From NCBI RefSeq assembly GCF_000715075.1, contig NC_134095.1:65911990-65975989 (forward strand): a DNA stretch of 64,000 nucleotides, read 5' to 3'. Positions 1,899-55,684 of the stretch are shown one piece after another. A program made the position numbers and the translations under genes. The number at the start of each line of letters is the position of its first letter. The first letter of the stretch is position 1. This DNA comes from Nicotiana tabacum. Its lineage: Eukaryota; Streptophyta; Magnoliopsida; Solanales; Solanaceae. The notes beneath the pieces were generated by a model. The model did not search any database, was not told the origin of the DNA, and saw only the letters and a program-made list of their open reading frames with translations.

Positions 1899-3743
1899 CT
1901 AGATGACTGCATCATCCGCTCTAGGAATCATCCTCTTTCTCTTTGAAGGCCTCTGTGACTGCTCTGGCTGGGGATGAGCTGGTGGCATAGGATCATCGAG
2001 CAATAAGTCCAAAGGCAGTTGGTCTGCCTTCAATCGGTCAACATCAACCCTCAATGCCTTCACAGACTCCTTAGAAGCCTGCGTCTTCCTCAATTTCTTG
2101 TGCTCCCTAGGATGCTCCTTGAGAGACTGGTTGTGTGAAGCAACTGTATCTGTGAGCACCTTCTGAGTGTCGAGGATTTTCTTCTGGTTGTCTAAAATCT
2201 CTTTCAAAGCATCCTCTATTGATTGGGAAACCTATGGGGCTGGAGGTGCCGACTGAGCCTCTACCGTGGTAGTCAGGATGGACAACTTGGATGAGGCAGT
2301 CTACATCCAGTTCTTGATACTCAAAAGTGCCTGGCTCAATCGATGGGCAGTAATAGGATGGGCCCGGGAAGATGGAATCTCCGGGTCCGTTGAGGTGGAT
2401 GGACAAGGAGGGGCAGCAGTGGAAGTAAATGCAGGCTCAGTTGGAGTCACTACCACAACTGGCTCTCCAAACTGGCCAGTTGGAGCAGTAAGTGTACTCT
2501 TGAAGTTCTTGCTCTTGGGGTTGTCATCCCCCTGCATGATGTACCAGGAAAAAGGGGCCTTCGCTTTGACTTTGATGTCGAAGGGCCTCTTCTCCACTTT
2601 CAGGTCCTGGAAGTACATAGTGAGGAAACTGGGGAACAGGTAGTTTCTGTCATGCTCAGAACCCACAATAGTAATAATCCGCGACATCACATTCCCCACA
2701 TTGATTGGGTACCTCGCCATGATCGAAGCCACTAACACAGCCTGGTGGAGAGGGAGGTAGTTGTCATGTGTCGTGGAGTCCAATCGGCTATATACAAAGG
2801 TCTCCCACCCCCGTGTCTCAAAGTTCTAACTCTGTCTCAAGATCTTGACTCCAGTAGTCAACCAGTCGGGGGTGGTACCTGGGATTGCCAGGTATTGTGC
2901 TAGCCAGGGACGACCTCCTCGCCCATTTCCATCTTTGCCATGTATAGGGTCTCATCTTCCTCATTAAACCCAAGATAGTCATTGATTGTCTTCCCGTCGA
3001 ACAACACCTTCAGATTTTGAACCTTGGTCACTTTGGATCCCTTTTTGATGTGGGCTACGTTGCTGTAAAATTCCTTGACCATGTGTTCGTTGGCATCCAC
3101 ACACTCATCTAGAAAGTGTTCCCAGCCCACTCTTGTCCTAAACTGCCTCATCACGTTGGGATTGTGAGGTACTAATCTCTATCAATAAAACTCCACTCCG
3201 GGATTAACTTCCTCACCGGCCACCATTCCCGGAACTTGTGGTACGCTACCTCACTAACAAACCAGTCCTGCCACACCTCTGGCTTCCTAGTTCGGGCAAT
3301 ACCCCCACTTGTGGTTCACCTCCTTCTCCTACTTCTTCGTCTCCCCCTACTTCCTTCTCATTACCTATTGCACCCTCTCCAGATAATGAAGCTGTGGGAG
3401 AGGTGGAGTATTCCCCACTACCATCACCTAAGCCCTCAGACGACCCAGGAGAGATGTTCATTGATGCTTGAGCAGTGGGGGATGCTGGAGGTGTATCTCT
3501 TAGTCTATGCCTCTCCGGCCAGTCAGGGATGTATTCTGGCATAGAGTCCGAAGAGATCTCCCGGGAAGGCTCGTACTCACTCCCCGACATGCCAATGGCT
3601 CTGTCAGCAGCTTTTATTGCTTTCCTCATGTTCTTGATGTTTTCCCTAGCTTGGGGAGTGAATTTTATCATTTTCTGCTTCCCTCCCCGGGAAGATCCAC
3701 CTCTGCCCGATTGTTTAGTTCCTTTGCCTCGTTGTTCTACCAT
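1899..3743 (-). pseudogene. Post-pol ORF of element A (Athila ORF / plant transposon-protein family), broken
   Basis: This is the reading frame downstream of integrase, in the position where Athila elements carry their extra (env-like) ORF. It begins at an ATG (3743) just after an apparent splice acceptor (TTGCAG). A Gly/Lys-rich basic start is followed by a segment with ANEHMVKEFYSN, VAHIKKGSK and GKTINDYLGF (2900-3154), then VASIMARYPINVGNVMSR (2301-2783), then a Lys/Asp-rich predicted coiled coil (1899-2207). These motifs recur in order in element B. From memory they resemble the 'putative plant transposon protein' / Athila ORF families; no domain search was possible. I see no signal peptide, transmembrane helix or envelope feature. 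In-frame stops and shifts separate the three pieces, so this copy is dead. Confidence 0.7.
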
Positions 3744-4400
3744 TGTCTGCAACCATAATTCAATCAGCTTGTTAGTATCAGTGTAATCAGTTAAGAACCA
3801 AAGTTGCATAAGAGAAAAGAAGAATTGTAGACAGTTCTCAGAAATAACCCAGTGCGGACCGCACAAAATGGTGTGCGGCCGCACAGGGGTCAATGCAGAC
3901 CGCACAAAATGGCCATGCGGTCCGCATAGGGGTGGGGTTCAAACTACCCACCCTCTGTATCTAGGCAGTGGGGACTGCACAAAATGTAGTGCGGCCGCAT
4001 ATGGGCATAGTGTTGTCCGCACAAAATATAGTGTTGTCTCACTGCCCAAAGTTCAGCTTCCAGGTATTTCATCAAGGCGGTCCGAACAAAATGGTACTGC
4101 GGACCGCACAGAATCGACTGCGGTCCGCACTGAATGCCCAGAAGTGGCACTGACTTAGGGTTTAACGGAATTTTGATTTTAAACATAATTAACACCTAAA
4201 CAATGGCCCTAAGTGATTTCCCATTGTTTTTAACTATAGGAGCCTACTCTAATCAAGAAATTTTACAACCTTAACCTAATCAATTGACTAAAATCTACGG
4301 GAAACATAGAGAGGGAAGCAAGAAGAACTAAAATTAAAAGAAATTAACAAAATTGAACAATTAAAAGGCAAGTAATGGTACCAGATGTAAAATGAAATAA
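3744..4400 (-). promoter_or_regulatory. Putative intron upstream of post-pol ORF, containing palindrome array B
   Basis: Read on the minus strand, a GT donor lies near 4382 (CATCTG followed by GTACCATT). A perfect plant branch-point consensus TACTAAC sits near 3772-3778, and the acceptor TTGCAG lies three bases before the ORF's ATG at 3743. The interval 3853-4131 holds six or more GCGG(A/T)CCGC or GCGGCCGC palindromes. Element B has the same TACTAAC-AG arrangement at 30741-30758, which argues that the intron is real. Splicing is inferred only. Confidence 0.5.
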
Positions 4401-4508
4401 AGTTAATCATTTCCAACAATCAATTACGAGCAAAGGGAGATGATGAACAGTGTTTGTATTAGTTTGAGATTCAAGGGTTCGAAAAGGGTAAAAGAAGAGC
4501 CTGAGGCC

Positions 4509-4763
4509 GTATTTATAGAAAAGGACCTGGGGCCCAGTCTCACCAGCCAGTACGGTCCGCACAAACTGAACCGCGGTCCGCACTATACAAATACTTTCAA
4601 GCTTGAGAAGGCAACAATCTGCGGTCTGCACAAAATGGACTGCGGCCGTAGAGGTCCACTGTGGACCGCACAAAATGTAGTGCGACCGCAGTGGAAAACT
4701 TCAGAGGGATCTACATTTCACCCTCAATAGTGCGATCCGCACTAAATGTAGTGCGGTCGCATT
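4509..4763 (-). promoter_or_regulatory. Putative internal promoter after pol: palindrome array A plus TATA box
   Basis: The minus strand reads an array of CGG/CCG palindromes (4551-4763: TACGGTCCGCAC, CGCGGTCCGCAC, TGCGGTCGCA and others), then about 35 bp, then TCTATAAATAC (plus positions 4509-4519). This copies the layout of the same element's LTR, where the array lies just upstream of TATAAAT. It would drive a transcript of the post-pol ORF without the LTR. Element B has the equivalent at 29745-30020. Confidence 0.5.
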
Positions 4764-10730: not shown

Positions 10731-12268
10731 TGATCGCGGCCTACTCCGCACTACTATTGAGTAGCGAGAGAGGGTCAGAGCAACTTTTACCCAATTTAGG
10801 GTCTGGATCGATTTCCACAGAGAGCTAGAATTTGGAATCGAGTATCTATCTAGTTTAGGATTACGTATGTGTTCCAAATTACACTTCTAATCATTTTTGG
10901 GGTTTTCATTTTACTTCTACTATTATCAACAACAAATGGTAAATGCAACTAGATTAAGCTAAGAGTTAAACTAAAAAGGGTTGTTCAAATGGTTTAAAAA
11001 GCACTAGGGTAATGACTTTCACCTAGGTGGTTAATTGACGGGTAATTGAATCTAAGACACGATTGACATAATTGGGGAGTATGATATAACCGTTGCACGA
11101 TATTACCCACTCTACAACTCTCGGTGGTTCGAGTGTTTTTGCCCGAATTGACTTTCTCAAGACCAATTGGGTATGCAAATTTGCACAAGCAACTAGGGTT
11201 CAAGTCGGGTATTACTTTCTCGAGGTTTAACCATTTAATTGGGGCTATCAATCTCTTGAGTAAGCCCCAATTCCTTGTTGGACCAATTTTGAATACTTAG
11301 GCTCTCTTTCTCAAGAAGAGCCCTAGTCAACTAAGCACAAACTAGTGTTTGCAACCACTAATTCAGCAATTAACCATGAAATTGGCCCAAATATCAAACA
11401 CTCATAGTCAATCTAGCCCTAAAATACAAAACCCATCAGTTACCCACACTAGGGTTGAACCACAACCCTAGCTTATGGGTCTAGCTACTCATAATTAAGA
11501 AAGAAAAGCAAGAAATAGATGAATAACAACTCATATTAATTAATCACTAAGGTAAATAACAAGATTCAATAATGAAAAGTAGTTAAAATTGCCCAAAATA
11601 ACTAAGAAACTCGAACACACGAGCGTAACTGCTTAATTACAATATCCGATACCCTAAAAATGGAAAAAGAAGCTATTTATACTAAGCTAAAAATTCTGGA
11701 CAAAAATGCCCCTGCGGGGTTAGTGCGGACCGCACAAAATGGTGTGCGGCCGCACTAGGGCTATGAATCTGAAGATCTGACTCTCTGAACTCAGGCACAA
11801 CGGACCGTAGAGAATGAACTGTGGCCGCAGAGGCTTCTAGTGCAGTCCGTACAAAATAGAATGCAGACCGCATTAACTTGAATCCTTGAAACTGGCACTT
11901 CTCTGATCTTGGGTTCTGCGGACCGCATTAAATTGAGTGCGACTGCATTGTTTTTAGTGCGGACCGCACAAATCCTAGTGCGGCCGCATTACCTTTGTGC
12001 CTTGAAAGTCATACTATCTGAACCTCACAGTGCGGACCGCACAAAATGTAGTGCGGCCGCACTGGTCTTGCTTTGACTGAGCTTTGTCTTATCTTGGTAC
12101 TTGTGCAAGTTTCACTCCTTTTGCGTTGATCTTTGACATCTTGTTACTTTGTTGATTAAACCTGCAATCAAGCACAAATTGTGAGCCTTTTGGGACTATT
12201 TTGTATGAATTTCTAATCAAAGCATAAGCAAGAAGGAATATAAAATGCGTTAAAATCCCTAGTTATCA
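10731..12268 (-). repeat. 5' LTR of element A (1538 bp)
   Basis: On the minus strand it begins TGATAACTAGGG and ends in GATCA next to the primer site. This matches the LTR ends of element B, and length agrees (1538 versus 1507 and 1534 bp). The TATA box AGTATAAATAGC is at 11672-11683, immediately downstream (minus sense) of a palindrome array at 11724-12061. The rest is A/T-rich leader sequence. The flanking CACCA after 12268 would be the target duplication but its partner is off-window. Confidence 0.9.
11724..12061 (-). repeat. Paired CGG/CCG palindrome array in LTR promoter of element A
   Basis: Six roughly 31-bp units are visible, each a pair of palindromes: TGCGGACCGCA, about ten bases (CAAAATGTAG type), then TGCGGCCGCA. 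The best copies start at 11724, 11958 and 12031. Others are decayed, mostly at CpG (ACGGACCGTAG, GCAGTCCGTAC). Palindrome centres are about 20-21 bp apart, close to two helical turns. The array ends about 40 bp before the TATA box. Confidence 0.8.
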
Positions 12269-14520
12269 CACCACTTGGGTAGGATCACCAATGCACTTTC
12301 GTAACATAGATACGTGAAAAATCGGATGAACAAACTCCAATTCCGAGGGCAATTCTAACTCATAAGCTACTTGGCCCACTCTTCGAATAATCCTATAAGG
12401 CCCAATATGTCGTGCGCTAAGCTTGCCTTTCTTGCCAAACCTAATTACACCTTTCATAGGTTACACCTTTAAAAATACCCAGTCATTAACCCCGAACTCT
12501 AAATCTCGTCGCCGCACATTAGAATATGACTTCTGACGACTCTGAGTTATCAATAGTCGCTCCCAGATAAGCTTTACTTTTTCTATGGCCTACTAAACCA
12601 GGTCTAGCCCATGTAACCCAGATTCTCCAACATCAAACCACCCTATGGGAGATCTACACATGCGCCCTTACAAAGCCTCGTACGAAGCCATTTGGATACT
12701 GGAGTGGTAACTATTATTATATGCAAACTCGATAAGAGGTAGATGTTCATCCCAACTTCTTTTAAAATCCAGCACACATGCTCGCAACATATCCTTGAGC
12801 GCCTGAATTGTGCGCTCGACTTGTCCATCCATTTGTGGATGAAAAGCTGTGCTGAGATTCACCTGAGTTCCTAGACCTTTCTGAAATGACCTCCAAAAAT
12901 GTGCTGTAAACTGGACCCCATGGTCAGATATAACAGATATTGGTACTCTGTGTAGTCTCACTATCTCCTTAATATATAACTTTGCATAATCTTCTACTGT
13001 ATATATAGATCTTACCGAAAGAAAATGAGCTGATTTCGTGAGCCTGTCGACTATCACCCATATGGAATCAAACTTACGATGGGAACGAGGTAAACATGCG
13101 ATAAAGTCCATGTTTATCGCCTCCCATTTCCATGTCGGGATCTCTATAGTCTGCATTAGCCCTCCAGGCTTTTGGTGCTCTATTTTCACCTGCTGGAAAC
13201 TAGGGCATTGCGCAACATACTCAGCAATGTTCTTCTTCATATCGTTCCACCAATACACATCCTTAATGTCATGATACATTTTTGTCGACCCAGGGTGAAT
13301 GGAATACCATGAATAATATGCCTCTGACATAATCTTGTCTCGTAGCCCTGCTACATCTGGAACACACAAACAACCCTTGTATATGAGAACCCATCTCCTC
13401 TGAGTTCTAACAAGGACTTCTTTTGTTGTGGAACCCGCTCTCTAAACTTGACTAACTCTAGATCCTCGTACTGCCTCTCCTTTACTTTAGCTATGAGAGA
13501 TGATTTTGCAGCATTTTGGGGTACAACTCCTCCATTGCCAGAGTCTACTAACAGAACCCCCAAACAAGCCAATTGATGAATCTCTCTTGTTAATTGTCTT
13601 TTCTCGGCCTCTACATGTGCTAAGCTACCCATAGATCGACGACTTAAGGCATCTGCTACAACATTAGTTTTCCCTGGATGGTAGAGAATGTTAACATCGT
13701 AATCGTTCAATAACTCAAGCCATTGCCTATGTCGCAAATTCAAGTCTTTTTGCTTGAAGATATATTGCAGGCTTTTATGATCTGTGAACACATCAACATG
13801 AACACCATATAAATAATGCCGCCATATCTTAAGTGCATGGACAACCACAGCTAATTCGAGGTCGTGGGTCAGATAATTCCGCTCATGCTTCTTTAACTGC
13901 CGTGAAGCATACACAATTACTTTTCCATGTTGTATTAGGACACATCCTAACCTGACACTTGAGGCATCAAAATACATGGCATAACCATATGGACCTTCTG
14001 GAAGTGCTAGAACTGGCGCTGAGGTCAACTTGTTCTTAAGCTCTTGGAAACTCTGCTCACATGCCTCTGCCCACTGAAACTTAGTCGCTTTCTGCGTTAG
14101 CTTTATTAATGGTGTTGACAGAGAAGAAAAACCCTCTACGAACCTCCGGTAATATACTGCTAAGCCTAGAAAGCTACGAATCTCTGTCGGAGTGGTAGGT
14201 CTAGGCTAGGATTTCACAACCTCAATCTTCTGAGTGTCTACCTTTATACCTCCGTTGGATAAAATATTCCCCAAGAATGCTACGGACTATAACTAGAACT
14301 CACACTTAGAAAACTTAGCATACAATTTATTATCATGGAGGGTTTGGGGTACTGCTCGTAGGTGATCCACATGCTTATCCTCTGAACGTGAATAAACCAG
14401 AATATCATCAATAAAGACTATCACGAACATATCCAAATATGGCCGGAATAGGCTATTCATCAAGTCCATAAATATGGCAGGTGCATTCGTCAATCTGTTC
14501 TTTGGAGTCATTTGATTCAT
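12269..14520 (-). pseudogene. Chromovirus-type Ty3/gypsy pol fragment (RT-RNase H-integrase)
   Basis: This is an older gypsy element cut at both ends. The minus strand reads the distal RT (14520-14293) with [15 protein letters not shown], RNase H (14028-13351) with [36 protein letters not shown] sequence and [12 protein letters not shown], and integrase (13369-12266). The integrase core shows VDRLTKSAHF, ISDHGVQFT and DGQVERTIQALKDM. The C-terminal domain has GPYRIIRRVGQVAYELELP and HPIFHVSMLRK. The zinc module has CPSFQQ where CPSCQQ is expected, so one Cys is lost. It differs clearly from elements A and B and resembles Solanaceae Tekay/Del chromoviruses; any chromodomain would lie beyond the insertion of A. 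RT upstream of the catalytic box, protease and gag are missing. Confidence 0.85.
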
Positions 14521-15051: not shown

Positions 15052-15850
15052 GTTTCTTTACCCCACAATTAATCCCCACTTCAATAGGACACCCACAATT
15101 ACTCCACAACCCCCTACTACCTTTATTAATATATGCATGCATAAATAACAACTCTTATCCTCAAAACCTTCTTCCCCATTACCTATTCCCAACCCAAAAT
15201 TTCAAAATTGAAGGCTAGGGCTAGAATCTTACCTCTTGGATGAAGACCTTGTGACTTCTTGTGAATTCTCTAACTTTTGAGCAAGAATTGATGAGCAGTT
15301 AGCTTAGGGACTACCCCTCTCACTCTATGGCACTTCCTTTCTCTAGAAATATCAGACTTTCCCTTTACAAATGGTCCCTAACGACTATATATCAAAATAG
15401 GGTCGGGTTATGAAATTAGAAAAAATGAAGCCCGATGCAGATCTGCGGTCGCATATGTGACTGCATAATGCCCTCCGGAACTGGGCATTTCTGTACAGGT
15501 ATGCGACAGATCTGCGGTCCGCAAACCAATTCTACGGTCGCAGAAAGGACCACAGAACCTTCTTACGAAATTTCTCATGCTGGCTTCTGCGACGGATGTG
15601 CGGACCGCGAAACGGTTAGGCGGTCGCATAGTTGACCGCAAAACATTCTCCAAAATTTGCTCATTTCTCTGCTTCACTCTGCGGCTGATTTGCGGTCTGC
15701 AGATCAGTTCTGCGGTCGCATAATGGACCGCAAAAATACCCTGTTCTGCAACAATTTTTTTTCAACTCCCTAACGCTCTATTCAACCCAAAAAATCCGTA
15801 CCGGGGCGAGCTCAAAGACATTGATAATTTCTTTCTATTATTCATATTAC
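15052..15850 (-). promoter_or_regulatory. Retroelement promoter/leader with CGG-CCG-rich array
   Basis: The minus strand reads about ten TGCGGTCC / GCGGTCGCA-type motifs (15440-15735), then GATATATAGT (plus 15384-15393) as a TATA candidate, then leader sequence with a good splice donor (GAGGTAAG, near 15230). This is the same order as in the LTRs of elements A and B, although the rest of the sequence is unrelated. The apparent ORFs here are by-products of the GC-rich motif. Confidence 0.5.
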
Positions 15851-17125
15851 ACTATTGTTGTCTCCTTCCAAAGATAAATCAATAAGAGGTCAAAAGTATC
15901 CTAACGAGCAATTTACAAACAAATAAGATGCTAAATTCTCAAAAAATTGGGGAAGAATGTAACAATCACTCACATAATACATTCACTAATGCAATATTTT
16001 ATTTGATGAAAATAAGTCCCTCTTGAAAAGACAGTTCAATCACTTTCGACTTATATGACACTGAACTTTAATGCCCAAATTTAATGCTCTGTTACAATAT
16101 AATCGTTTCTAAGAAAATATACATTTACAATCATACGAAGATGGCATCATAAACTACACCCACAGAGACATGGAAGATATCATTTCCAATTAAGTTTTAT
16201 TTTCTCTCATTTTACATTTAAAACTCCAAAAGAATTTTGGTTTTAACTTTTTTACTTTCTCAATATGTTCTAATAGATATTTAACAGATGTGTAATTTTC
16301 TACAACCTCAATTGCAATAGCTTATCTTGGCACCACGAAACTCCGGGTTTTAGTTAAAATTTTATGAGACTTTACATACTTGAAAAATAGTTATAATTTC
16401 AAAAGTAATCAAAATTTAGCTACTTTTCATGTAAAAGATAAATTTGAATAAAAACACTGTTCAAAATTCGAAAATATTTCAGCATAATATGCCGGAGTTC
16501 GAATTTTTTACATGAGAACTTCCAGCATAGCATGTTGCAATTCCATAATGTGCTGGAGTTCCAACATAATATGCTGGAAGTCCATATACATGTGCTCCAA
16601 TATCCAGTATATTATGCTGGAACTTTCTGTGTGTTGGAGTTCTAACATAATATGCTGTAAGTTCATACACAGGAGTTCCAATGTCTAATATATTATACTG
16701 GAATTTTCCGTGTTGCAGCAAAATAGTAGCTATTTTTTAATGATACTGTAAACTCTTCCTATTGTTTAATTACCAGTCCAAAAACTGGTTAGCCCGTGCT
16801 ATTTTGACTTCATCGAAGTACTCTCTTTTGAACCGAAGAATATAGACGGTTTTTAGTTGGATAAATATTTCAGAATTATGATTTTATGCGGCAGTCTTTC
16901 TCTAAAATTTTGTTAACTTGACTCTCAAAACATGTTTAGTTTACAGAAATTTTGATTTCATCTTACATCTAAAGGGAAAAAAGTGAAATTATCGTCTAAT
17001 AATTTAAAGTATTTACTTATACTTTTTTTCAAATGCAAGATTTTTTTCTTACTCTGATTCCATGAATGATTCTGCCATATTCAGAACAATACTTATTGTA
17101 TTCATTTTTACTTGTCTATTATAAT
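15851..17125. other. Intergenic, A/T-rich; no gene seen
   Basis: No coding or RNA gene is seen. At 16478-16735 a motif of the type CATAATATGCTGGAAGTTC recurs in both orientations (at least eight half-copies), which suggests the inside of a non-autonomous DNA transposon or an old tandem/inverted repeat. I could not find its ends or a target duplication. Confidence 0.5.
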
Positions 17126-22370: not shown

Positions 22371-23877
22371 TGACAAATAGGGATTCTAGTTCATTTTACA
22401 CTTCTTTTTACATGAGTTTTGGATTAAAAATGTATACAAATAGTCCCAAAGGCTTACATGTTGTACTTGTTTGCAGGGTTTGGTCAAAAAGTGACAAGTA
22501 GTCAAAACCAGCTCAAAAAGGAGTAAAACATGCACAAGTACTAAGAACAAGGCAAGGCACTGCTGCAACATAAATTCCACTTCAGCCGCAACATACCCAC
22601 CACGACCGCAGACCATTTAGTGCGATATGTGATGGATGAGTTCAGAGAGGTGAACTTTTGGAGCTTAAAGCAGTGCGGTCCGCGGATGATTTCTCGTGGC
22701 CGCAATCCATTTTGTGCGGTCCACGGAAAGGGGATTCAGAGAGTTGGGAGTTTGGACGATTAAAGCCAGCGCGGTTCGTAGAGCATTTTGTGCGGACCGC
22801 AGTGAAGCTACCGCGAAGAATTTTATGCGGTCCGCGGTGGCCAGATTTAGAGAGTGAAAAGTCAAGCCAAAAAGCCTCATCGCGGTCGCGGTGCATTTTC
22901 CGCGGTCCGCAATACCTCCGTCAGGGGTATTTTTGTCCAGAAAATTTGACTTAGTATAAATACTTTCTTTTTACATTTTATGGCATCTGTTAGAATCCAG
23001 AGCACGTGAATAGTGGTTTTGTTCCATTTTGAGTAATTTGTAGCTAGTTTAGCACTGAATCTTCAATTTTTAGTTTGTAATCAAATTATATGGGTTATTC
23101 TTTATCTGATTTTATGATTTCTTCCATTATTATGAGTAGTTAGACCAATTATCTAGGGTTGTGGCTCAACCCTAATGTGGGTATTTGATAGTTCTTTTGA
23201 TTTAAAGCTTAGATGTTTATGGGTAGTTGATATTTGGACTGATTTGTATTTTCCATGTTAAATTAGTGGTTGCAAACACTAATTTGTACCTATTTGACTT
23301 GTGCTCTTCTTGAGAAAGAAATCTTGAGTCTAGGAAAATCAGTTCAACAAGGAATTGGGGTGTAATCAAGAGATTGATAGCCCCAATTAAAGGGTTAAAC
23401 CTAGAGATAGTAATATCTGACTTGAGTCTATATTGCTTGCACAATTTTTCACACCCAATTGGTCTTGAGAAAGTCAATTAGGGCAAAGTCACTCAAGCTA
23501 CCGAGAGGTATATGGTGAGTAGTTCTGTGCATTGGCTATATTGCAATCCCCAGCATAACAACTTTGCCTTAGACTTTAGATCCCATCAAGTATTCACCTA
23601 GGAGAAAGTCACTTCCCTAGTGCCTTTTTAACCATTTAGAAAACCTTACAAGTATTTACTCTTAGTTTAATTTAGCATCTCAATAGTATAAAATTAGAAG
23701 TAGCAAACAACAATTATGATTGAAAGTGTAATTAAGAGCACTACACACTGCTAGTTTAGATAGGAATCCAAATCCCAATCAATCTAGCTCATTGTGGATT
23801 CGATCCCGACCATCTCGGGTAAAAGCTGCATCGACCGCTCTTGTCACTTTGTAGTGGTGTAGGGTTGGACATAATCA
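22371..23877 (+). repeat. 5' LTR of element B (1507 bp)
   Basis: It starts TGACAAATAGGG and ends ATAATCA next to the primer site. Its TATA box AGTATAAATAC lies at 22953-22963, right after a palindrome array (about 22610-22915; motifs such as GTGCGGTCCGCGG and GTGCGGACCGCAG). The remainder is leader-like A/T-rich DNA. Confidence 0.92.
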
Positions 23878-29744: not shown

Positions 29745-30020
29745 CACTGCGGCCGCATTGCATTTCTTGCGGCCGCAAAGGCCTTAGTGCGGGGGCAAAA
29801 TTTCAATGTGGTTCGCAGTAGTGATTGGTAAAAATTGGAGGTTCTCTGAAGTTGTCATCGTGGCCGCATTGCCTTTCTTGCGGTCCGTTGTGCTTTACTG
29901 CAGCTGCGGAACATTTTGTATGGTTTGCAGTGCCTGTCTCCCCAGTACTTCATGTGTTCAAGCACCGCGGTCCGCGGTGGATAGGTATAGTGGGTCCCAT
30001 GTCCTTTTTCTATAAATAGG
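29745..30020 (+). promoter_or_regulatory. Putative internal promoter after pol in element B
   Basis: A decayed array of TGCGGCCGCA / CCGCGGTCCGCGG motifs (29750-29975) is followed about 35 bp later by TTCTATAAATAGG (30008-30020). This matches the order in element A (4763 to 4509) and in the LTR. About 60 bp downstream of the TATA an ATG (30078) opens a short frame that runs to a donor at 30147. Confidence 0.5.
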
Positions 30021-30147
30021 ACCCGAGGACTTCATTTAAAACTTTTCGCTCATTTGCTTTCCAAATAGAAAAAAACAATGTTTATCACGCCTAACTGCAC
30101 GAATTCAATCACTGATTCACTTTCATCTGTGTTGCATCTCATTACTG

Positions 30148-30758
30148 GTAATTTTAATCTTTCCTTAGTCTTTAATTGTGTTTTATTTTCTTTTAATTTG
30201 TTAGTTCTACGTCTTTTTCTTCCCTTTTTCTTTAAATTTTTAGCTTAGGTTGCATAAGTTGTTTAGATTAGGGTTAATTAGCTAAGAATGGTGATTGAAC
30301 ACCTAGTGGGTTGACAATATGTGAATTTAGGCTAAAATGATAACAATGTTGAAACCCTAAGTTGGTATTGCTGAGTTTTGCTTACCGCGACCGCGATGGT
30401 TTTTCTGCAGTCTGCGGTGCCTCTCTGCGGTGCTATTTTATGCGGACCACGGTGGTAAAACTTCATAGAGGTAAGGTTTGAGGACCGCGACCGCGGTTGA
30501 TTTTCTGCGGTCCGCGGTGTCTTCCCGCAGCCGCAATACAATTCTTGCGGTCCACGATGCCCTGAATCAGAGAGTGGATATTCTGACCCCCACCTCAATG
30601 AAGACCGCGGTGCCATTTTGTGCGGTCCGCGGTGGTCTCTTTGCAGCTGCATTGCATTTTTTGCGGACTATGGTCTGTAGTTCTGCTTTACACTATCAAC
30701 TGTCTGCAATCATACTCTTTACTGCTTCTTCTGGTTTTGATACTAACAAACACTAAAG
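30148..30758 (+). promoter_or_regulatory. Putative intron before post-pol ORF, containing palindrome array B
   Basis: The donor ACTG|GTAATT is at 30147/30148, the perfect branch consensus TACTAAC at 30741-30747 and an AG acceptor at 30757-30758. Splicing would join the short frame from ATG 30078 to the post-pol ORF in phase (codon split one base plus two). Array B (30383-30680) lies inside. Element A shares the TACTAAC-AG end. No transcript evidence is available. Confidence 0.5.
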
Positions 30759-32480
30759 GCGGAGGTGACAAACAGAAAGGCAAAGGAGAGTCCTCCCAGG
30801 GTAGGGGACGAGGTATAATCAAATTGACCCCCCAAGTCCGGCAGGCAATTAAGGACACCAGAAAGTCAATCAAGGCTGCAGATAGAGCTGCTTCCCATTC
30901 AAAAGTAAGTGAATATTTTCCCTCCCAGGAGGCATCTGACTCCGATTCAGTGCCAGAGTATGTTCCTGGCTGGCCGGAGGAGGCACAGATTGAGAGATAC
31001 ACCTCCGAGCACTCATACTGCTCGAGCTTCAGTTCCAATTTCTTCTGAGTAGTCTGAGGGCTCAGCTGAGGGCAGTGACAGTACAACATCTACTTCACCT
31101 ACTGGTTCATCACCTGGAGAGGATCCCGTCGACGATGAGGTTCCGGATGCAGAGGGAGGAGGTGTGCTACAACCTGGGGGTGTGGAGAGAACTAGAAAAC
31201 CGAGATGTGATAACGAAGATTTGTCAATGAGATTTCTTACCACAAATTTCGAGAGTGGTGGCCCAAGAGGAAGTTGATACTTGAACGGAGATTCATTGAC
31301 AAGGATCTTCTGCCTTACAACCCTAATGTGAAGAGGAAATTCAGAGAGAGATCGGGCTGGGACTATTTTACAGGCAATGTTGAGGAGGCAAATGAGCACC
31401 TAGTCAAGGAGTTCTACGCTAATGTTGCCCACATCAAAAAGGGCACGAAAGTAACTAAGGTGTGAAATTTGATAGTAAAGTTTGATGGGAAGACAATCAA
31501 TGACTACCTGGGCTTTCTAGAGGAAAATGAAACATTATACCTAGAAAAGGTAGCATTGGATGAGGACACCCGTCTGTGGTTAGCAGAGTACTTGGCACTC
31601 CCAGGTACCACCCCAACATGGTTGACAGCAGGAGTCCAAATTTTGAGGAGGACCCTGAACTTCAAGGCAAAAGGGTGGGAGACATTTGCTTTCAGCAGGC
31701 TGGACTCCATCACTCATGAGAACTCTCTTCCTATCTCCCGGGCAATTTTGGTGGCATCTATCATGGCGGGGTACCCGATCAACATCGGGAATGTTATGTC
31801 TAGGGTGATCACGAGGGTGGTGAATGAAGGTGATAGATCATACCCCTTCCCAAATTTCCTGACCATGTACTTTGAGTACCAAGATGTGTAGAAAAGGAAG
31901 TTTGATGTGAAAGTGAAACCCAAAACACCTTTCTTCTAGTACAGCCTCAAGGGTGATGACAACCCCAAAGACCTTAAAGGCAAAGCCACTGCTTCTACTG
32001 GCCAGTCTGAAGAGCCAGTAGTAGTAGTATCTTCTTCTCAGCCTCCCTCAGTTACACTAGACATTGCCCCAAGACCTTTTACTGCTACTACTCCAGATAT
32101 CCCCTCATCCTCAGCTTACCTATTGACTGCCCACCATTTGAGCCAAACCCTTACCAGTATCAACAACTAGATGCAGACAACTACTTCTAAGATGTCTGTG
32201 CTTTCTAGCTCGATGGCAGCCCAGTCCGTACCCCCACAGCCACAGGTCCCAGCCTTAGTGGAGGAGACTCTTAAGGAGCTTCTGGACAACCAGAAGAAGC
32301 TCTTGGAGAACCAAAAGTTGATATTAGATGATGTGGGTACTCATGGAAAATCACTGAAGGAGCTGGCAAAGGAAACAAAGAAGTTGAGAAAGACTCGAGC
32401 ATCAAAGGAGTTTGTGAAGGAGTTGAGGGTCGAAGTGGAGAAAATGAAGGCTGATCACTTGCCATTGGAGCTACTATAGC
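30759..32480 (+). pseudogene. Post-pol ORF of element B (plant transposon-protein family)
   Basis: It has the same organisation as 1899-3743. A Gly/Lys-rich start (GKGESSQGRGRGIIKLTPQ) leads into an acidic SDSDSVPEYVPGWPEE segment and then the main block with FIDKDLLPYNPNVKRKFRER, ANEHLVKEFYANVAHIKKG, GKTINDYLGFLEENETLYL, WLTAGVQILRRTLNFKAKGW and ILVASIMAGYPINIGNVMSR. The end is a Lys/Glu-rich coiled coil (32270-32480). A frameshift near 31045 and TGA/TAG codons at 31465, 31890 and 31938 break it. No transmembrane segment or signal peptide is seen, so an envelope role is not supported. It may be nucleic-acid-binding given the basic N-terminus (inference). Confidence 0.7.
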
Positions 32481-34597: not shown

Positions 34598-36131
34598 TGA
34601 TAACTAGGGATTCTAGTTCATTTTACACTCCTTTTTACTTGAGTTTTGGATTAAAAATGTATACAAATAGTCCCAAAGGCATACATGTTGTACTTGTTTG
34701 CAGGGTTTGGTAAAAAAAGTGACAAGTAGTCAAAACCAGCTCAAAAAGGAGTGAAACATGCACAAGTACCAAGAACAAGTCAAGGCACTACTGCAACATA
34801 AAATCCACTACAGTCGCAAGAGACCCACCGCGGCAACAAACCATTTAGTGCAGTCTGCGATGGATGAGTTCAGAGAGGTGCACTTTTCGATCTTAAAGTA
34901 GTGCGGTCCGTGGAGGATTTCTCGCGGCCGCAGTAGCCTCTTCACAGCCGCAATCCATTTTATGCGGTCCGCGGAGAGAAGATTCAAAGAGTTGGGAGTT
35001 TGGAGAATTGAAGCCAGCACGGTCCGCGGAGCATTTTGTGCGGACCGCAGTGAAGCCACTACGGCCGCGGAACATTTTATGCGATCTGTGGTGTCTAGAT
35101 TCAGAGAGAGAAAAGTCAATCCAAGAAGCCTTATTGCGGCCGCGACACATTTTCCACGGTCCGCAATACCTCCGTCAGGGGTATTTTTGTCCAGAAAATT
35201 TGGCCTAGTATAAATACTTTCTTTTCACATTTTTAGGGCATCTGTTAGAATCCAGAGCACATGAACGACGGTTTTGTTCCATTTTGAGTAATTTGTATCT
35301 AGTTTAGCACTGAATCTCCAATTTCTTAGTTTGTAATCAAATTATATGGGTTATTCTTCATCTAATTTTATGATTTCTTGCATTATTATGAGTAGCTAGA
35401 CTCATTTGCTATGGTTGGATCAACCCTAGTATGGGTATTTGGTGGGTCTTTTGATTTAAGGCTTAGATGTTTATGAGTAGTTGATATTTGAACTGATTTG
35501 TGTTTTCCATGTTGAGTTAGTGGTTGCAAATACTAATTTTTGCCTATTTGACTTGGGCTCTTCTTAAGAAAGAGAGCTTGAGTCTAGGAAAATCAGTCCA
35601 ACAAGGAATTGGGGTGTAATCAAGAGATTGATAACCCCAATTAAAGGGTTAAACCTAGAGATAGTAATACCCGACTTGAGCCTATATTGCTTGTACAATT
35701 TTTGACACCCAACTGGTCTTGAGAAAGTCAATTAGGGCAAAGTCAACCAAGCTACCGAGAGGTATAGAGTGAGTAGTTCTGTGCATTGGCTATATTGCAA
35801 TCCCCAACATAATAACTTTGCCTTAGGCTTTAGATCCCATCAAGTATTCACCTAGGAGAAAGTCACTTTCCTAGTGCCTTTTTAACCATTTAGAAAACCT
35901 TACAAGTATTTATTCTTAGTTTAATCTAGCATCTCGATAGTATAAAATTAGAAGTAGCAAACAACAATTATGATTGGAAGTGTAATTAAGAGCACTACGC
36001 ACTGCTAGTTTAGATAGGAATCCAAATCCCAATCAATCTAGCTCCATGTGGATTCGATCTCGGCCATCTTGGGTAAAAGCTGCATCGACTGCTCTTGCCA
36101 CTTTGTAGTGGTATAGGGTTGGACCTGATCA
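34598..36131 (+). repeat. 3' LTR of element B (1534 bp)
   Basis: It starts TGATAACTAGGG and ends CTGATCA. It is collinear with 22371-23877, and its TATA box lies near 35205-35215 after a palindrome array (about 34800-35170). The 3' LTR retains an extra palindrome pair (near 34925-34950: GCGGCCGCAGTAGCC) that is absent from the 5' LTR and accounts for part of the length difference. Confidence 0.92.
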
Positions 36132-36410
36132 GTCCTCGAGATCGGGTACCATCTCGAGTCTTGTAATGATATCAATGGCTCCTTAGAGCCTATCTTCTTC
36201 TTGATAGAGGTACTCGAGATCGGGTACCATCTCAAGGTATGTAATGATATAAATGGCTCCTTAGAGCCTATCTTCTTCTTGATAGAGGTCCTCAAGATCA
36301 GGTACCATATCAAGGCTTGTAATGATATCAATGTCTCCTTAGAGCCTATCTTCTTTTTGACAGATGTCCTCAAGATCGGGTACCATCTCGAGGCCTGTAG
36401 ATGCGGGGGT
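36132..36410. repeat. 78-bp tandem repeat (about 3.5 units)
   Basis: Units start at 36132, 36210, 36288 and 36366, an exact 78-bp period. Each has CTCGAGATCGGGTACCATCT, then GTAATGATATCAATGGCTCC, then TAGAGCCTATCTTCTTCTTG. A further unit is left of element B (22290-22370). It belongs to element C. Confidence 0.9.
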
Positions 36411-48439: not shown

Positions 48440-49940
48440 AAGGAATTTTAACCTCCTATAGCAAAAGTTAACACCTTATTTATTTTAAATAAATACTATT
48501 TAAAAAAATTATATTCTATAGATACATTTTAATGTTTATAGCAAAATATATAATTTTGGTTACTTTCTACCCCTAAGCCACTAAATACTTTATTTAGTTA
48601 CACTATTTTCTTTTTCTCTCTACTTTGATACATGTCATTCTCTTCCCCCATTCCCTGAAAACACGATGCTCAATCTCAAAATTCCTCTCATCCATATCAC
48701 CTACCATTAATCACAAACGGTGATTTCAAGTTCATGATGTCTCATCACGGTGGTAAAAGGAATGCTGAGAAATCCCATGTTTCGTGTCTCTCATCCTCGT
48801 TTTCAATTCCATCAGAAACTCTAACTTTGCTCATCTTGTCTTCGCACCAATGCAACCGTTCATCATTCAGTTCACCCATTCTCAATACTCTTGACACCAC
48901 TTTTAAGTCTATTAATCCCATCAATATCTTCATCTCTTCCTCTTCTTTTCTCCAAACTGCATTTCCCTGACCGACGCAGATCTTTCACCCTTGACTTTTT
49001 CTGCATATCAAAATTATTTTAATTTTCAATTTGTTTTAACAAAAAAGAACAGATGATTAATATAGACATATATCTCAAAGCTCTTGTCACCAAGCTGCTC
49101 TCAAAAGTTGATGTCTATGTAGATCCGAATTTCAGCTCAGTGAGATTCAGGGTTTTTACTCGATGGCGAATTCGCCGGAAATTAGGGTTTGTTCTTGAAC
49201 AAAAACAACAGAGTTTGGGGCTGAGCAACTCGATTTTCTGTTAATATATTTCAATGTATTTTCAACGTATCACGCTATATTTTCATGTATTTCATTGTAT
49301 TTTTTTCATTGTAATTCAATGTATCTCGTTGAATTCAATGTATTTCATTGTATTCACAGTCTTTTTTTCATTGTATTTCAATGTATCCCGCTGTATTCTA
49401 TGTATTTCATTGTATTCACTGTCTCGTTATATGCCATGAATGTATTCATATATTTTTTAATTAATATAATTTACGTATTCAGATGTATTATATAATTTCT
49501 CTGAAGATTGCTATATGTTTGGGGTATTTTTCGGTTGAGAATCTTTTTTATAACTGGAAATACAATTTTTGTGTGTTATAATTGAGTTTGTTGAGTTATA
49601 TTAGGAGTCTATTTATGTTAATTGATTTACTTTCCGTTTAAAAACAGCGTAATCCTCTGTTCCACGCCGTGAATACAGTCAAATACAGTTGAATACAATA
49701 ATCTGTCCAGCTGTAATCTCATGTTTCACGCCATGAATACAGTCGAATACACTCGAATACAACAACTAATTAGCTGGATTTCCCTGATTCACGCCTATTT
49801 TTGCTACTGTATTCATGAATACAGTAGTTTAAATACATCTTATAACAACAAAAAACGTATCTACAATCCGTAATATAGCAAATGATATCTATAGATAGCT
49901 AATTACCACTAAAAGATAGTGCTTTATGAAAATTTCTCTT
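48440..49940. repeat. Probable non-autonomous DNA element with TGTATTC-rich interior
   Basis: Left (CTATAGCAAAAG) and right (ATATAGCAAATG) parts share short repeated words. The interior 49240-49450 is a run of ATTCAATGTATTTCATTGTA variants, and 49670-49830 carries the inverse words (GAATACAGTCAAATACAG). The arms could form a long imperfect foldback. The short open frame at 48734-48970 is not supported. Ends are not fixed. Confidence 0.4.
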
Positions 49941-53602: not shown

Positions 53603-55387
53603 TCATGGTGTGAAAGCCCTCCTTTGTTCAGATCTTCCCCGGTTTCTATGAAGATCTAACTTGTTATTTGATCTTTGGTGAGCATATCGATTATCATTAA
53701 TTTCCGGTCTCCTAGAAGATCTTGAGGTTCTTTCTTCGGCCCTATTGGAACTTCGTCCAGACGAAGTCCTCAATGATCTTATTGGAAGCTTTCTGTCCTC
53801 ATATCTTGTTGGAGCATCTTGCTCACTATTATTTTCTGCTCTCCAAGATGATCTTCTTGATGTTCTTTCCACATCTCTGTTTCGATTTCTTCCGGAGGAC
53901 GCCCTCGGCGAGGTTGCTGAATGCTTCCTATCATCAACTCTTGTACTCAAGTTTAATCTTCGGCTAGGCTTCACATCTCTAGCCTCATTGTCCGTGTCAT
54001 CATCATTATTTTCTGCTCTCCAGGACGATCTTCTAGAGGTTCTTTCCACAACTTTGTTGTTTCGATTTCTTGACGTCCACGGTGAGTTTGCTGAAAGCTT
54101 CTGATCATCAACTCTTGTCCTCAAGTTCAATCTCCGGTGATGCTTCACATCTCTAGCCTCATTGTCCATCTCATCATCATTGTAGTCATTATACACATCA
54201 TCAGAGTCCTCATCATCCTCATCTTCTTCTTCTTCTTCTTCTTCCATATCATCGTGAGGTTCCTTTTCATCACCTTCATTCCGATCATGACTACCTTTTT
54301 GCTGTATATCTTTTTGTTTTTTATCCTCAGTCACCTTGTTCATGAGATGAACAAACTTATACCTCATTTCCATCAACGGGCTCCTCTGAATCAACATTCC
54401 CCTTTTATAACCCTCCTTCAATACCACACTATGTGTGCCAATCTTACTCGACACGTAGAATATGCCGGGATGCAACATTAACGCCCTCTTAAACCTAGAA
54501 CGAAGTCCCAAACACTCTCCTATCAAAAGGAGATTATCTCTCTCCGCCTTCTTCCCAACACAAAGATTAAGAATTTCATGTAAAATTGCCACTGCCCACT
54601 TATCAGCCTCATCACTCTTTGCAGGAAGATGCATTGCATTCTCATAAGGCGAAATATAAGGCAACTTCTGCCACTCATCAATCCATTTCTTGTACTTCTT
54701 ATCCACCTCAAACCCATTCGAATACTTCAAAGCAAACTTATTAACTAACAAATCCTGATCATTTTCGCTCTTCATTGCTTGTTTTTGCATAAAGGAAACA
54801 GCAAGTTCATGACTCCAACAAACTAACTCCAACACCAACTCATTATTATTCACCTGAAAATAATCAGGATATTCTGGTACTAAAGTCTTCGCATAACTAT
54901 CACATAAACCCAAATCCCATTTAAGCTTATCAATAACATGTAATGGAATTTTATTAATTTTACCTATCATCAAAAGCTTCAAGATCCTATCAGCAACATC
55001 TTCTTTGTAACTCACACTTTGGTAAAACAACTCTTCATCTGAATCAAGGCTCAGAATTTCTGGTGTTAACTTGATATGAGGGTGTATGCTAATGTTGGCT
55101 GGGAAAAACTCTTGAAAAATTGAAGGGTATTTTCGGATAAACTCGACGGGCCGAGTTGGGATTTGAAGGGAGTCTTTGGATTGTGTGATAATGTTTAAGG
55201 GGATGGATTTTGAGGGTTCAGATTTGATGAGGTTCTTGATGTTGAGAAGGGGTTTGAGGTTCTTTTCTCTTTCGACGGCGTGGTCGAGGCCACGGTCTCG
55301 GACGTGTTTGAGGGAAAGGGCATCGTCGAATAGTGTTCGCCATTGTTGACGCTGGTGGTGCTGAGTTCGACGGAGGAGGAAATGCAT
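53603..55387 (-). CDS. WTF9-like: PORR-domain organelle RNA-splicing factor, WTF9-like
   Basis: Single-exon gene of 594 codons. Residues about 26-345 form a PORR (plant organelle RNA recognition) domain: KHVRDRGLDHAVEREKNLKP, then FIRKYPSIFQEF, HPHIKLTPE, the WDLGLCDSYAKTLVPEYPDY block, KKWIDEWQKLPYISPYENA and the C-terminal LHPGIFYVSSKIGTHSVVLK. The sequence agrees best, from memory, with WHAT'S THIS FACTOR 9, a mitochondrial factor for splicing of group II introns (rpl2 and ccmFC in Arabidopsis). The basic, acid-poor first 18 residues fit an organelle presequence; the ATG is the first in frame. Odd: after about residue 360 a Lys/Asp linker, a Glu/Asp tract (365-410) and three Arg/Ser-rich repeats of about 50 residues (411-565) extend the protein by some 200 residues beyond the Arabidopsis length. 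No stop or shift; presumed functional. Confidence 0.92.
   Translation of the reverse strand: MHFLLRRTQHHQRQQWRTLFDDALSLKHVRDRGLDHAVEREKNLKPLLNIKNLIKSEPSKSIPLNIITQSKDSLQIPTRPVEFIRKYPSIFQEFFPANISIHPHIKLTPEILSLDSDEELFYQSVSYKEDVADRILKLLMIGKINKIPLHVIDKLKWDLGLCDSYAKTLVPEYPDYFQVNNNELVLELVCWSHELAVSFMQKQAMKSENDQDLLVNKFALKYSNGFEVDKKYKKWIDEWQKLPYISPYENAMHLPAKSDEADKWAVAILHEILNLCVGKKAERDNLLLIGECLGLRSRFKRALMLHPGIFYVSSKIGTHSVVLKEGYKRGMLIQRSPLMEMRYKFVHLMNKVTEDKKQKDIQQKGSHDRNEGDEKEPHDDMEEEEEEEDEDDEDSDDVYNDYNDDEMDNEARDVKHHRRLNLRTRVDDQKLSANSPWTSRNRNNKVVERTSRRSSWRAENNDDDTDNEARDVKPSRRLNLSTRVDDRKHSATSPRASSGRNRNRDVERTSRRSSWRAENNSEQDAPTRYEDRKLPIRSLRTSSGRSSNRAEERTSRSSRRPEINDNRYAHQRSNNKLDLHRNRGRSEQRRAFTP
54210..54250 (-). 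repeat. GAA/GAG microsatellite in the WTF9-like gene
   Basis: A TTC/CTC trinucleotide run on the plus strand encodes the Glu/Asp-rich tract around residues 381-390. Trinucleotide slippage would change tract length without shifting the frame. Confidence 0.8.
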
Positions 55388-55684
55388 GTAGCTAATTTTG
55401 GGGGTATTGGGGCTTATGAGTGGTGTTGTTTCGAGGGTTTAAGGAGGGCTTTTTAGGTCATAACAACATAGAAGAAAGGTAATTGCAAAGGCCATCCTTA
55501 GGTTAATGCCAAGAATGCAACTTGAGCTTCCAAGTTTAGTTATTCTTAAGATGAAGGGTTAATTTCATCTAGGAGGCTATAATAGAATACTGAACTTCAT
55601 ACAAAGACATTAAATCTATATCTATATTTACATCTATATTTATATCCTATATATTAAAAAAATTAAAGTTTACATTATAATTAA
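55388..55684 (-). promoter_or_regulatory. Proximal upstream region of the WTF9-like gene
   Basis: About 300 bp separates the start codon from a MITE. No clear TATA box is seen on the minus strand, which is common for organelle-factor genes. Promoter limits cannot be set from sequence alone. Confidence 0.4.

What the first reader, a model, noticed from the sequence alone, without database searches (positions are those of the whole stretch)
11672..12061. Paired-palindrome array with two-turn spacing directly upstream of a retrotransposon TATA box
In the LTR of element A, six units pair TGCGGACCGCA with TGCGGCCGCA across about ten bases, placing palindrome centres about 20-21 bp apart (two helical turns). 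The array ends about 40 bp before TATAAAT. Elements B (both LTRs) and A share it. Seen directly: motif, spacing, position. Inferred: sites for a dimeric DNA-binding protein acting as promoter or as a silencing target; each palindrome is also a CG/CHG methylation target. I know of no named system with this description.
Basis: partly seen in the sequence, partly recalled or inferred. Interest (0 to 1): 0.8.

Follow-up and report, generated by a model that had tools for sequence, protein, structure and literature searches.

The report
Palindrome arrays at retrotransposon promoters
Two related jumping elements in a tobacco-type genome carry rows of evenly spaced GC-rich mirror-image DNA sites just before the start signal of their main promoter and again before a second, internal start signal, an arrangement known from another superfamily of plant retrotransposons and most likely a landing pad for a paired DNA-binding protein.

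Summary
The array is real. The window holds 61 GCGG-N0/1-CCGC sites (5.8 expected), and 27 neighbouring pairs lie 19-22 bp apart (0 in each of 100 shuffles). The usual unit is two palindromes 12 bp apart, one with a 0-bp and one with a 1-bp centre.

The first internal array is also followed by TATAAATA, 39 bp (A) and 40 bp (B) after the nearest palindrome; in the LTRs the distance is 48-49 bp. A third locus shares only the motif.

A named precedent exists. Sirevirus (Ty1/copia) "RM boxes" are CGG-CCG palindromes clustered in CpG islands before the LTR TATA box and before the env-like gene (PMC2829016). Here the architecture sits in Ty3/gypsy, Athila-type elements. An internal ENV-ORF promoter is already reported for Arabidopsis Athila6A (PMC4977677).

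Most likely these are upstream activating sites for a dimeric host factor serving two promoters. Binding, activity and methylation are untested. Verdict: new variant of a known kind.

The parts
10731..12268 (-). 5' LTR of element A (sense runs 12268 to 10731; TGATAACTAGGG...GATCA), followed by a PBS-like TGGCGCC
   Evidence: homology to B LTR 73% over 10949-12268; LTR end and PBS-like stretch read
11724..12061 (-). palindrome array in U3 of A's LTR: 9 sites at 7/8 or better; six pair slots, three of them exact
11674..11681 (-). TATAAATA of the A LTR, 48 bp after the nearest palindrome centre
4551..4761 (-). A internal array 1 (8 sites, 5 pairs) between integrase and extra ORF
4510..4517 (-). 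internal TATAAATA of A, 39 bp after the nearest palindrome centre
3853..4129 (-). A internal array 2 (8 sites, 5 pairs) between internal TATA and extra-ORF start
1902..3743 (-). extra ORF (eORF) of A, broken; ATG at 3743; pieces with PF20167 (2903-3178, 2301-2825) and a later piece (1902-2231) with a basic cluster
22371..23877 (+). 5' LTR of element B
   Evidence: 89.4% identical to 34598-36131; flanking 5-mers GTCCG and GTCCT, 4 of 5 alike
22674..22911 (+). palindrome array in U3 of B 5' LTR (7 sites, 3 pairs)
22955..22962 (+). TATAAATA of B 5' LTR, 49 bp after the nearest palindrome centre
29748..29976 (+). B internal array 1 (5 sites, 2 pairs)
30011..30018 (+). internal TATAAATA of B, 40 bp after the nearest palindrome centre
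30386..30631 (+). B internal array 2 (7 sites, 3 pairs)
31214..32476 (+). eORF pieces of B, broken; PF20167 in 31214-31462 and 31466-31888
34598..36131 (+). 3' LTR of element B
34902..35165 (+). palindrome array in U3 of B 3' LTR (8 sites, 4 pairs)
35209..35216 (+). TATAAATA of B 3' LTR, 49 bp after the nearest palindrome centre
15444..15720 (-). third array in an unidentified locus (6 sites, 2 pairs with 11-bp spacers); minus-strand TATATAG (first T at 15391) about 57 bp after the nearest palindrome centre; the strand is inferred from this TATA-like site

Best explanation
The array is a cluster of upstream regulatory sites for a dimeric DNA-binding protein of the plant (identity unknown) with a GCGG half-site. 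Two dimers sit on the same face of the helix, two turns apart. The elements use such clusters at two promoters: the LTR promoter for the full-length RNA, and an internal promoter for the extra ORF after integrase. Shown here: motif, 0/1 centre, 12-bp spacer, the fixed distances to two kinds of TATA box in two diverged elements. Inferred: that a protein binds, that it acts on transcription (activator more likely than repressor), and that the internal TATA is used. An internal ENV-ORF promoter is reported in the related Athila6A of Arabidopsis (PMC4977677).
For: Sites far above chance, with only 0- and 1-bp centres: exact 9 and 20, against 0 at gaps 2-5; 61 sites and 27 phased pairs. Spacer is 12 bp in 21 of 27 pairs, 11 in 4, 13 in 2; pairs of unlike centre 21 of 27 (P 0.002). 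TATA distances are 48, 49 and 49 bp in the LTRs and 39 and 40 bp internally; 5 of 16 TATAAATA in the window have a site within 60 bp upstream, against 3.9% of random positions. The five belong to one element lineage, so they are not independent. Internal TATA block conserved between A and B while the arrays around it turned over. Core bases diverged less than linkers between A and B LTRs: 8 of 53 against 77 of 213 columns (P 0.003). The same architecture is described in Sireviruses. The third locus has the motif without shared flanks.
Against: No binding, expression or methylation data. Cores are not significantly more conserved than the rest of the LTR (8 of 53 against 250 of 1029, P 0.14), and the aligner tends to lay motif on motif. 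Arrays changed faster than the rest of the LTR after B inserted (40 of 281 against 94 of 1224, P 0.001). No known factor was identified. Internal array 2 has no TATA after it. Only two elements of one lineage were seen, plus one unidentified locus.
Confidence: 0.6

Rival explanations
1. The palindromes act in RNA. Each pair folds into a hairpin in the transcript (U3 lies at the 3' end of genomic RNA, and the internal arrays are inside it), feeding small RNA production and silencing, as proposed for maize Sirevirus palindromes. It may coexist with the promoter role as its cost.
For: A LTR array folds better than shuffles, z -6.85, 0 of 100 as good; B 5' LTR array z -2.60, 4 of 200. Excess small RNAs on palindromic LTR regions of maize Sireviruses is stated in PMC10760457 (passages).
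Against: Palindromic DNA folds well as RNA whatever its role. The 12-bp spacer, two-turn phasing and fixed TATA distance are not asked for by hairpins, and the unlike centres put a bulge in the stem. No small RNA data here.
Confidence: 0.15
2. The extra ORF's own product binds the arrays and controls or de-silences the element, as VANC does for VANDAL transposons, or as the foamy-virus transactivator acts on LTR and internal promoter (the latter recalled).
For: Arrays lie in non-coding stretches at LTR and directly before this ORF. The product starts with a basic RG-rich stretch, and 7 of the 8 relatives whose sequence reaches the C-terminal region have a run of three or more K/R there. VANC21 binds arrays of a short motif in its own element (PMC5735166, passages).
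Against: No recognised DNA-binding domain, no PDB relative, structure model unusable (mean pLDDT 41.8). The third locus has the motif with no such ORF identified near it. Sireviruses without ENV also carry RM boxes in LTRs.
Confidence: 0.1
3. A neutral by-product: a short palindromic unit that multiplied by slippage or unequal exchange, spacing inherited and without function.
For: Linkers between pairs recur in form; sites expand and contract between A and B; Tandem Repeats Finder reports one array stretch, 4077-4135. Neutral repeats can look regular.
Against: Fixed distance to TATA at two different promoters, core better kept than linkers despite CpG content, same motif at a locus with no other similarity, and the Sirevirus parallel.
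Confidence: 0.12

Closest known systems
Sirevirus RM boxes (Ty1/copia; Bousios et al. 2010, PMC2829016; passages and sections 9 and 19 seen)
   Same: Palindromes with CGG-CCG core, 8 or more copies per element, starting 200-400 bp into the LTR (here 207, 303, 304 bp), clustered in CpG-rich DNA shortly before TATA, and extra copies before the env-like gene.
   Different: Host element is Ty3/gypsy (PR-RT-RNaseH before INT, extra ORF after INT), not Ty1/copia. Here a TATA box follows the internal array in both elements; the 2010 authors could not conclusively identify an internal promoter. The two-dimer unit with 12-bp spacer is not described in the passages seen.
Palindrome-rich LTR cis-region of maize Sireviruses (Bousios et al. 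2016; not held; known from passages in PMC10760457 and PMC5311732)
   Same: Palindrome cluster in the LTR regulatory part, fast evolving, strong predicted secondary structure.
   Different: Different superfamily and motif (CACCGGAC...GTCCGGTG); small RNA mapping not available here.
Athila6A of Arabidopsis with internal ENV-ORF promoter (PMC4977677, passages)
   Same: Athila-type element with promoter before the ORF after integrase, and an intron in the characterised transcript set.
   Different: No palindrome arrays mentioned in the passages seen; the Arabidopsis sequence was not compared here.
VANDAL/VANC anti-silencing system (PMC5735166, passages)
   Same: Element-borne arrays of a short motif in non-coding regions.
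   Different: DNA transposon; motif is not palindromic (YAGTATTAY) and copies point the same way; its binding is shown, ours is not.

Membership tests
Sirevirus RM box | palindrome with CGG-CCG core | tested here: met
   GCGG-N0/1-CCGC, 61 sites in the window
Sirevirus RM box | at least eight copies per element | tested here: met
   A: 9 in LTR, 16 internal; B: 7 and 8 in LTRs, 12 internal
Sirevirus RM box | cluster beginning 200-400 bp into LTR and lying shortly before TATA | tested here: met
   starts 207, 303, 304 bp in (coordinates); TATA 48-49 bp after last palindrome centre
Sirevirus RM box | additional copies before the env-like gene | tested here: met
   two internal arrays between INT and PF20167 ORF in both A and B. 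Whether the ORF is env-like is open.
Sirevirus RM box | forms a CpG island | tested here: met
   CpG o/e 0.79-1.32 and GC 51-56% in the 8 arrays against 0.29 and 0.52 in the rest of the B 5' and A LTR. 8 of 8 arrays overlap island-like stretches, but 16 of 24 such stretches in the window lie elsewhere
Sirevirus RM box | element is a Ty1/copia Sirevirus | tested here: not met
   A has protease, RT/RNaseH, then integrase, then the extra ORF: Ty3/gypsy order
Athila (Ty3/gypsy) | Ty3/gypsy domain order and extra ORF after integrase | tested here: met
Athila (Ty3/gypsy) | tRNA-Asp-type primer binding site | tested here: inconclusive
   TGGCGCCATTGTCGGGGA after the A LTR read by eye; the tRNA match is recalled, no tool compared it
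Athila (Ty3/gypsy) | RT groups with Athila in a tree | not tested
   no Athila reference sequences at hand
VANC-like self-binding system | element-encoded protein binds the array | not testable with these tools
   needs a binding assay; structure model unusable

The most novel reading that the evidence does not exclude
The extra ORF, long called env-like in this kind of element, encodes a nuclear regulator that binds the paired palindromes at both the LTR and the internal promoter, a plant counterpart of the foamy-virus LTR/internal-promoter circuit or of VANC, and unrelated plant retrotransposon superfamilies have converged on CGG-CCG arrays because they use this kind of switch.
Probability: 0.1. 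Interest if true: 0.85.

Novelty: new variant of a known kind. Interest (0 to 1): 0.5.

Why it matters
RM boxes were reported as Sirevirus-specific within Ty1/copia. The same layout in Ty3/gypsy elements points to convergence on a common host factor or constraint. The pair geometry (two palindromes, 12-bp spacer, 39-49 bp to TATA) gives a precise probe for finding that factor, and the array plus TATA before the extra ORF makes the old question of how plant retrotransposons express their post-pol ORF directly testable.

Tried and rejected
Own-genome scan for the motif: the genome search (own, same request) did not complete in 17 tries, so enrichment across the genome is untested. Motif scan of viral contigs: 0. 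Relatives of the eORF and integrase in viral contigs: none confirmed. B LTR start against plasmids: none.

Structure of the PF20167 domain: mean pLDDT 41.8, unusable, so no fold search was made. PDB by sequence: none. Rfam at gathering score: only MIR6152, unrelated.

LOB-domain (LBD) factors considered as binder because their recalled site GCGGCG resembles the half-site; the searches (listings only) gave nothing decisive, so no factor is named.

Splicing from an internal leader to an acceptor before the eORF ATG: A has TACTAAC and GCAG just before the ATG, but no convincing donor shared with B was found; left open.

Classical envelope: no clear membrane segment in the eORF pieces (highest 19-residue hydropathy 1.47 within the ORF), but two of eight relatives reach 1.72-1.73, so this is weak. 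One of my A pieces (3246-3745) was read in the wrong frame in that script and does not count.

Literature: the motif string itself, 0 papers. No paper on palindrome arrays in Athila came up. Of the five papers, passages of four were seen and one, PMC9519882, was not opened. Most subscription papers are not held.

Full report
What was checked. The window holds two related LTR retrotransposons. Element B (+) has LTRs at 22371-23877 and 34598-36131, 89.4% identical, with flanking 5-mers GTCCG and GTCCT. Element A (-) has its 5' LTR at 12268-10731 and runs off the left end of the window; its LTR is 73% identical to B's. In A the order is protease, reverse transcriptase with RNase H, integrase, then an extra ORF with PF20167, which is Ty3/gypsy order. 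The stretch after the LTR (TGGCGCCATTGTCGGGG) and the polypurine tract of B (TTTGGGGGAG) look like Athila; that label rests on memory plus the general description in PMC6317226 (passages), not on a tree.

The array. Searching for GCGG-N0/1-CCGC at 7 of 8 or better gives 61 sites in 64 kb, against a mean of 5.8 and a maximum of 14 in 100 dinucleotide shuffles; 58 of the 61 fall in eight arrays. Exact sites have a 0- or 1-bp centre (9 and 20) and none has a centre of 2-5 bp. Neighbouring sites lie 19-22 bp apart in 27 cases, against none in any shuffle; each array taken alone has more such pairs than random placement gives (P 0.028 or less in all eight, not corrected). Between the two cores there are 12 bp in 21 of 27 pairs, 11 in 4 and 13 in 2. 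Pairs join unlike centres in 21 of 27 (P 0.002), in the order 0-gap then 1-gap in element sense in 15. The spacer tends to cATTTTGT. In the A LTR, six pair slots exist, three exact and three degenerate.

Where the arrays lie. The same arrays are also inside both elements, between integrase and the extra ORF: one before and one after an internal TATAAATA. From nearest palindrome centre to first T of TATA the distance is 48 bp (A LTR), 49 and 49 bp (B LTRs), 39 bp (A internal) and 40 bp (B internal); 5 of the 16 TATAAATA in the window have a site within 60 bp upstream, against 3.9% of random positions. These five come from one lineage, so the probability printed there overstates the case; there are really two kinds of promoter. 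A and B align across the internal TATA (CCTTTTTCTATAAATA), while palindromes around it have been gained and lost. The second internal array has no TATA after it.

A third array (15444-15720) lies in a locus that I could not identify. It shares only the 12-bp motif with A and B, has two pairs with 11-bp spacers, and a minus-strand TATATAG lies about 57 bp beyond its nearest palindrome.

Tests for and against function. Between the A and B LTRs, in columns where B's two LTRs agree, cores differ in 8 of 53, spacers 9 of 30, linkers 77 of 213, rest of LTR 250 of 1029. Core against linker P 0.003, core against rest P 0.14. The alignment favours motif on motif, so this is modest support. Between B's own LTRs the array changed faster than the rest (40 of 281 against 94 of 1224, P 0.001), yet kept more CpG (19 of 30 against 6 of 18, P 0.07). 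Thus there is no sign of rapid CpG loss by methylation, and no proof of selection after insertion. As RNA the A array folds far better than shuffles (z -6.85) and the B array less so (z -2.60); any palindrome would.

The extra ORF. In A its ATG is at 3743, matching the start MVKQRGKGSK-type of relatives. It is broken in both A and B. Relatives show a basic RG-rich start, PF20167, a charged stretch resembling a coiled coil (by eye), and in 7 of the 8 that reach it a run of three or more K/R. No clear membrane segment was found in the window's pieces, though two of eight relatives are borderline. Pfam names no DNA-binding domain, the PDB has no relative, and the model was unusable.

Comparison with the known. 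Bousios et al. 2010 (PMC2829016; passages, sections 9 and 19) described RM boxes in 13 Sireviruses: palindromes, all but one with a CGG-CCG core, starting 200-400 bp into the LTR, forming CpG islands with TATA on average 37 bp after, and, in elements with an ENV gene, further copies before it (77 of 79 linker copies). They called the RM a Sirevirus-specific feature within Ty1/copia and could not conclusively identify an internal promoter. The present arrays meet each of these features that I tested except the superfamily. PMC4977677 (passages) reports transcription starts, an intron and an ENV-ORF promoter in Arabidopsis Athila6A, so an internal promoter at this place has precedent. The combination (RM-type arrays at both promoters of Ty3/gypsy elements, with an internal TATA at fixed distance) did not come up; the library lacks most subscription papers.

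Judgement. The reading as sites for a dimeric protein at a promoter is the best one and is strengthened by the internal promoter, but rests on anatomy. The claim of no named precedent falls. I file it as a new variant of a known kind, interest 0.5.

Noticed in passing
window 3853-4761 and 29748-30631: Internal arrays and internal TATAAATA between integrase and extra ORF in both A and B; outside the finding's coordinates but central to it.
   Followed up: yes
window 15052-15870: Unidentified minus-strand locus with palindrome array, TATATAG and a leader-like stretch; shares only the motif with A and B.
   Followed up: partly
window 12270-14500: Minus-strand gypsy-type pol fragment (RNase H, integrase) directly beside the start of A's LTR; A may have inserted into it.
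   Followed up: no
window 49603-49709: Rfam match to MIR6152 microRNA precursor, minus strand, 73.3 bits.
   Followed up: no
window 53603-55438: Minus-strand 611-aa ORF with a PORR domain (plant organelle RNA recognition), E 6.8e-112: likely a host gene.
   Followed up: no
window 36132-36399: Tandem repeat of 78 bp, 3.4 copies, starting at the base after B's 3' LTR.
   Followed up: no
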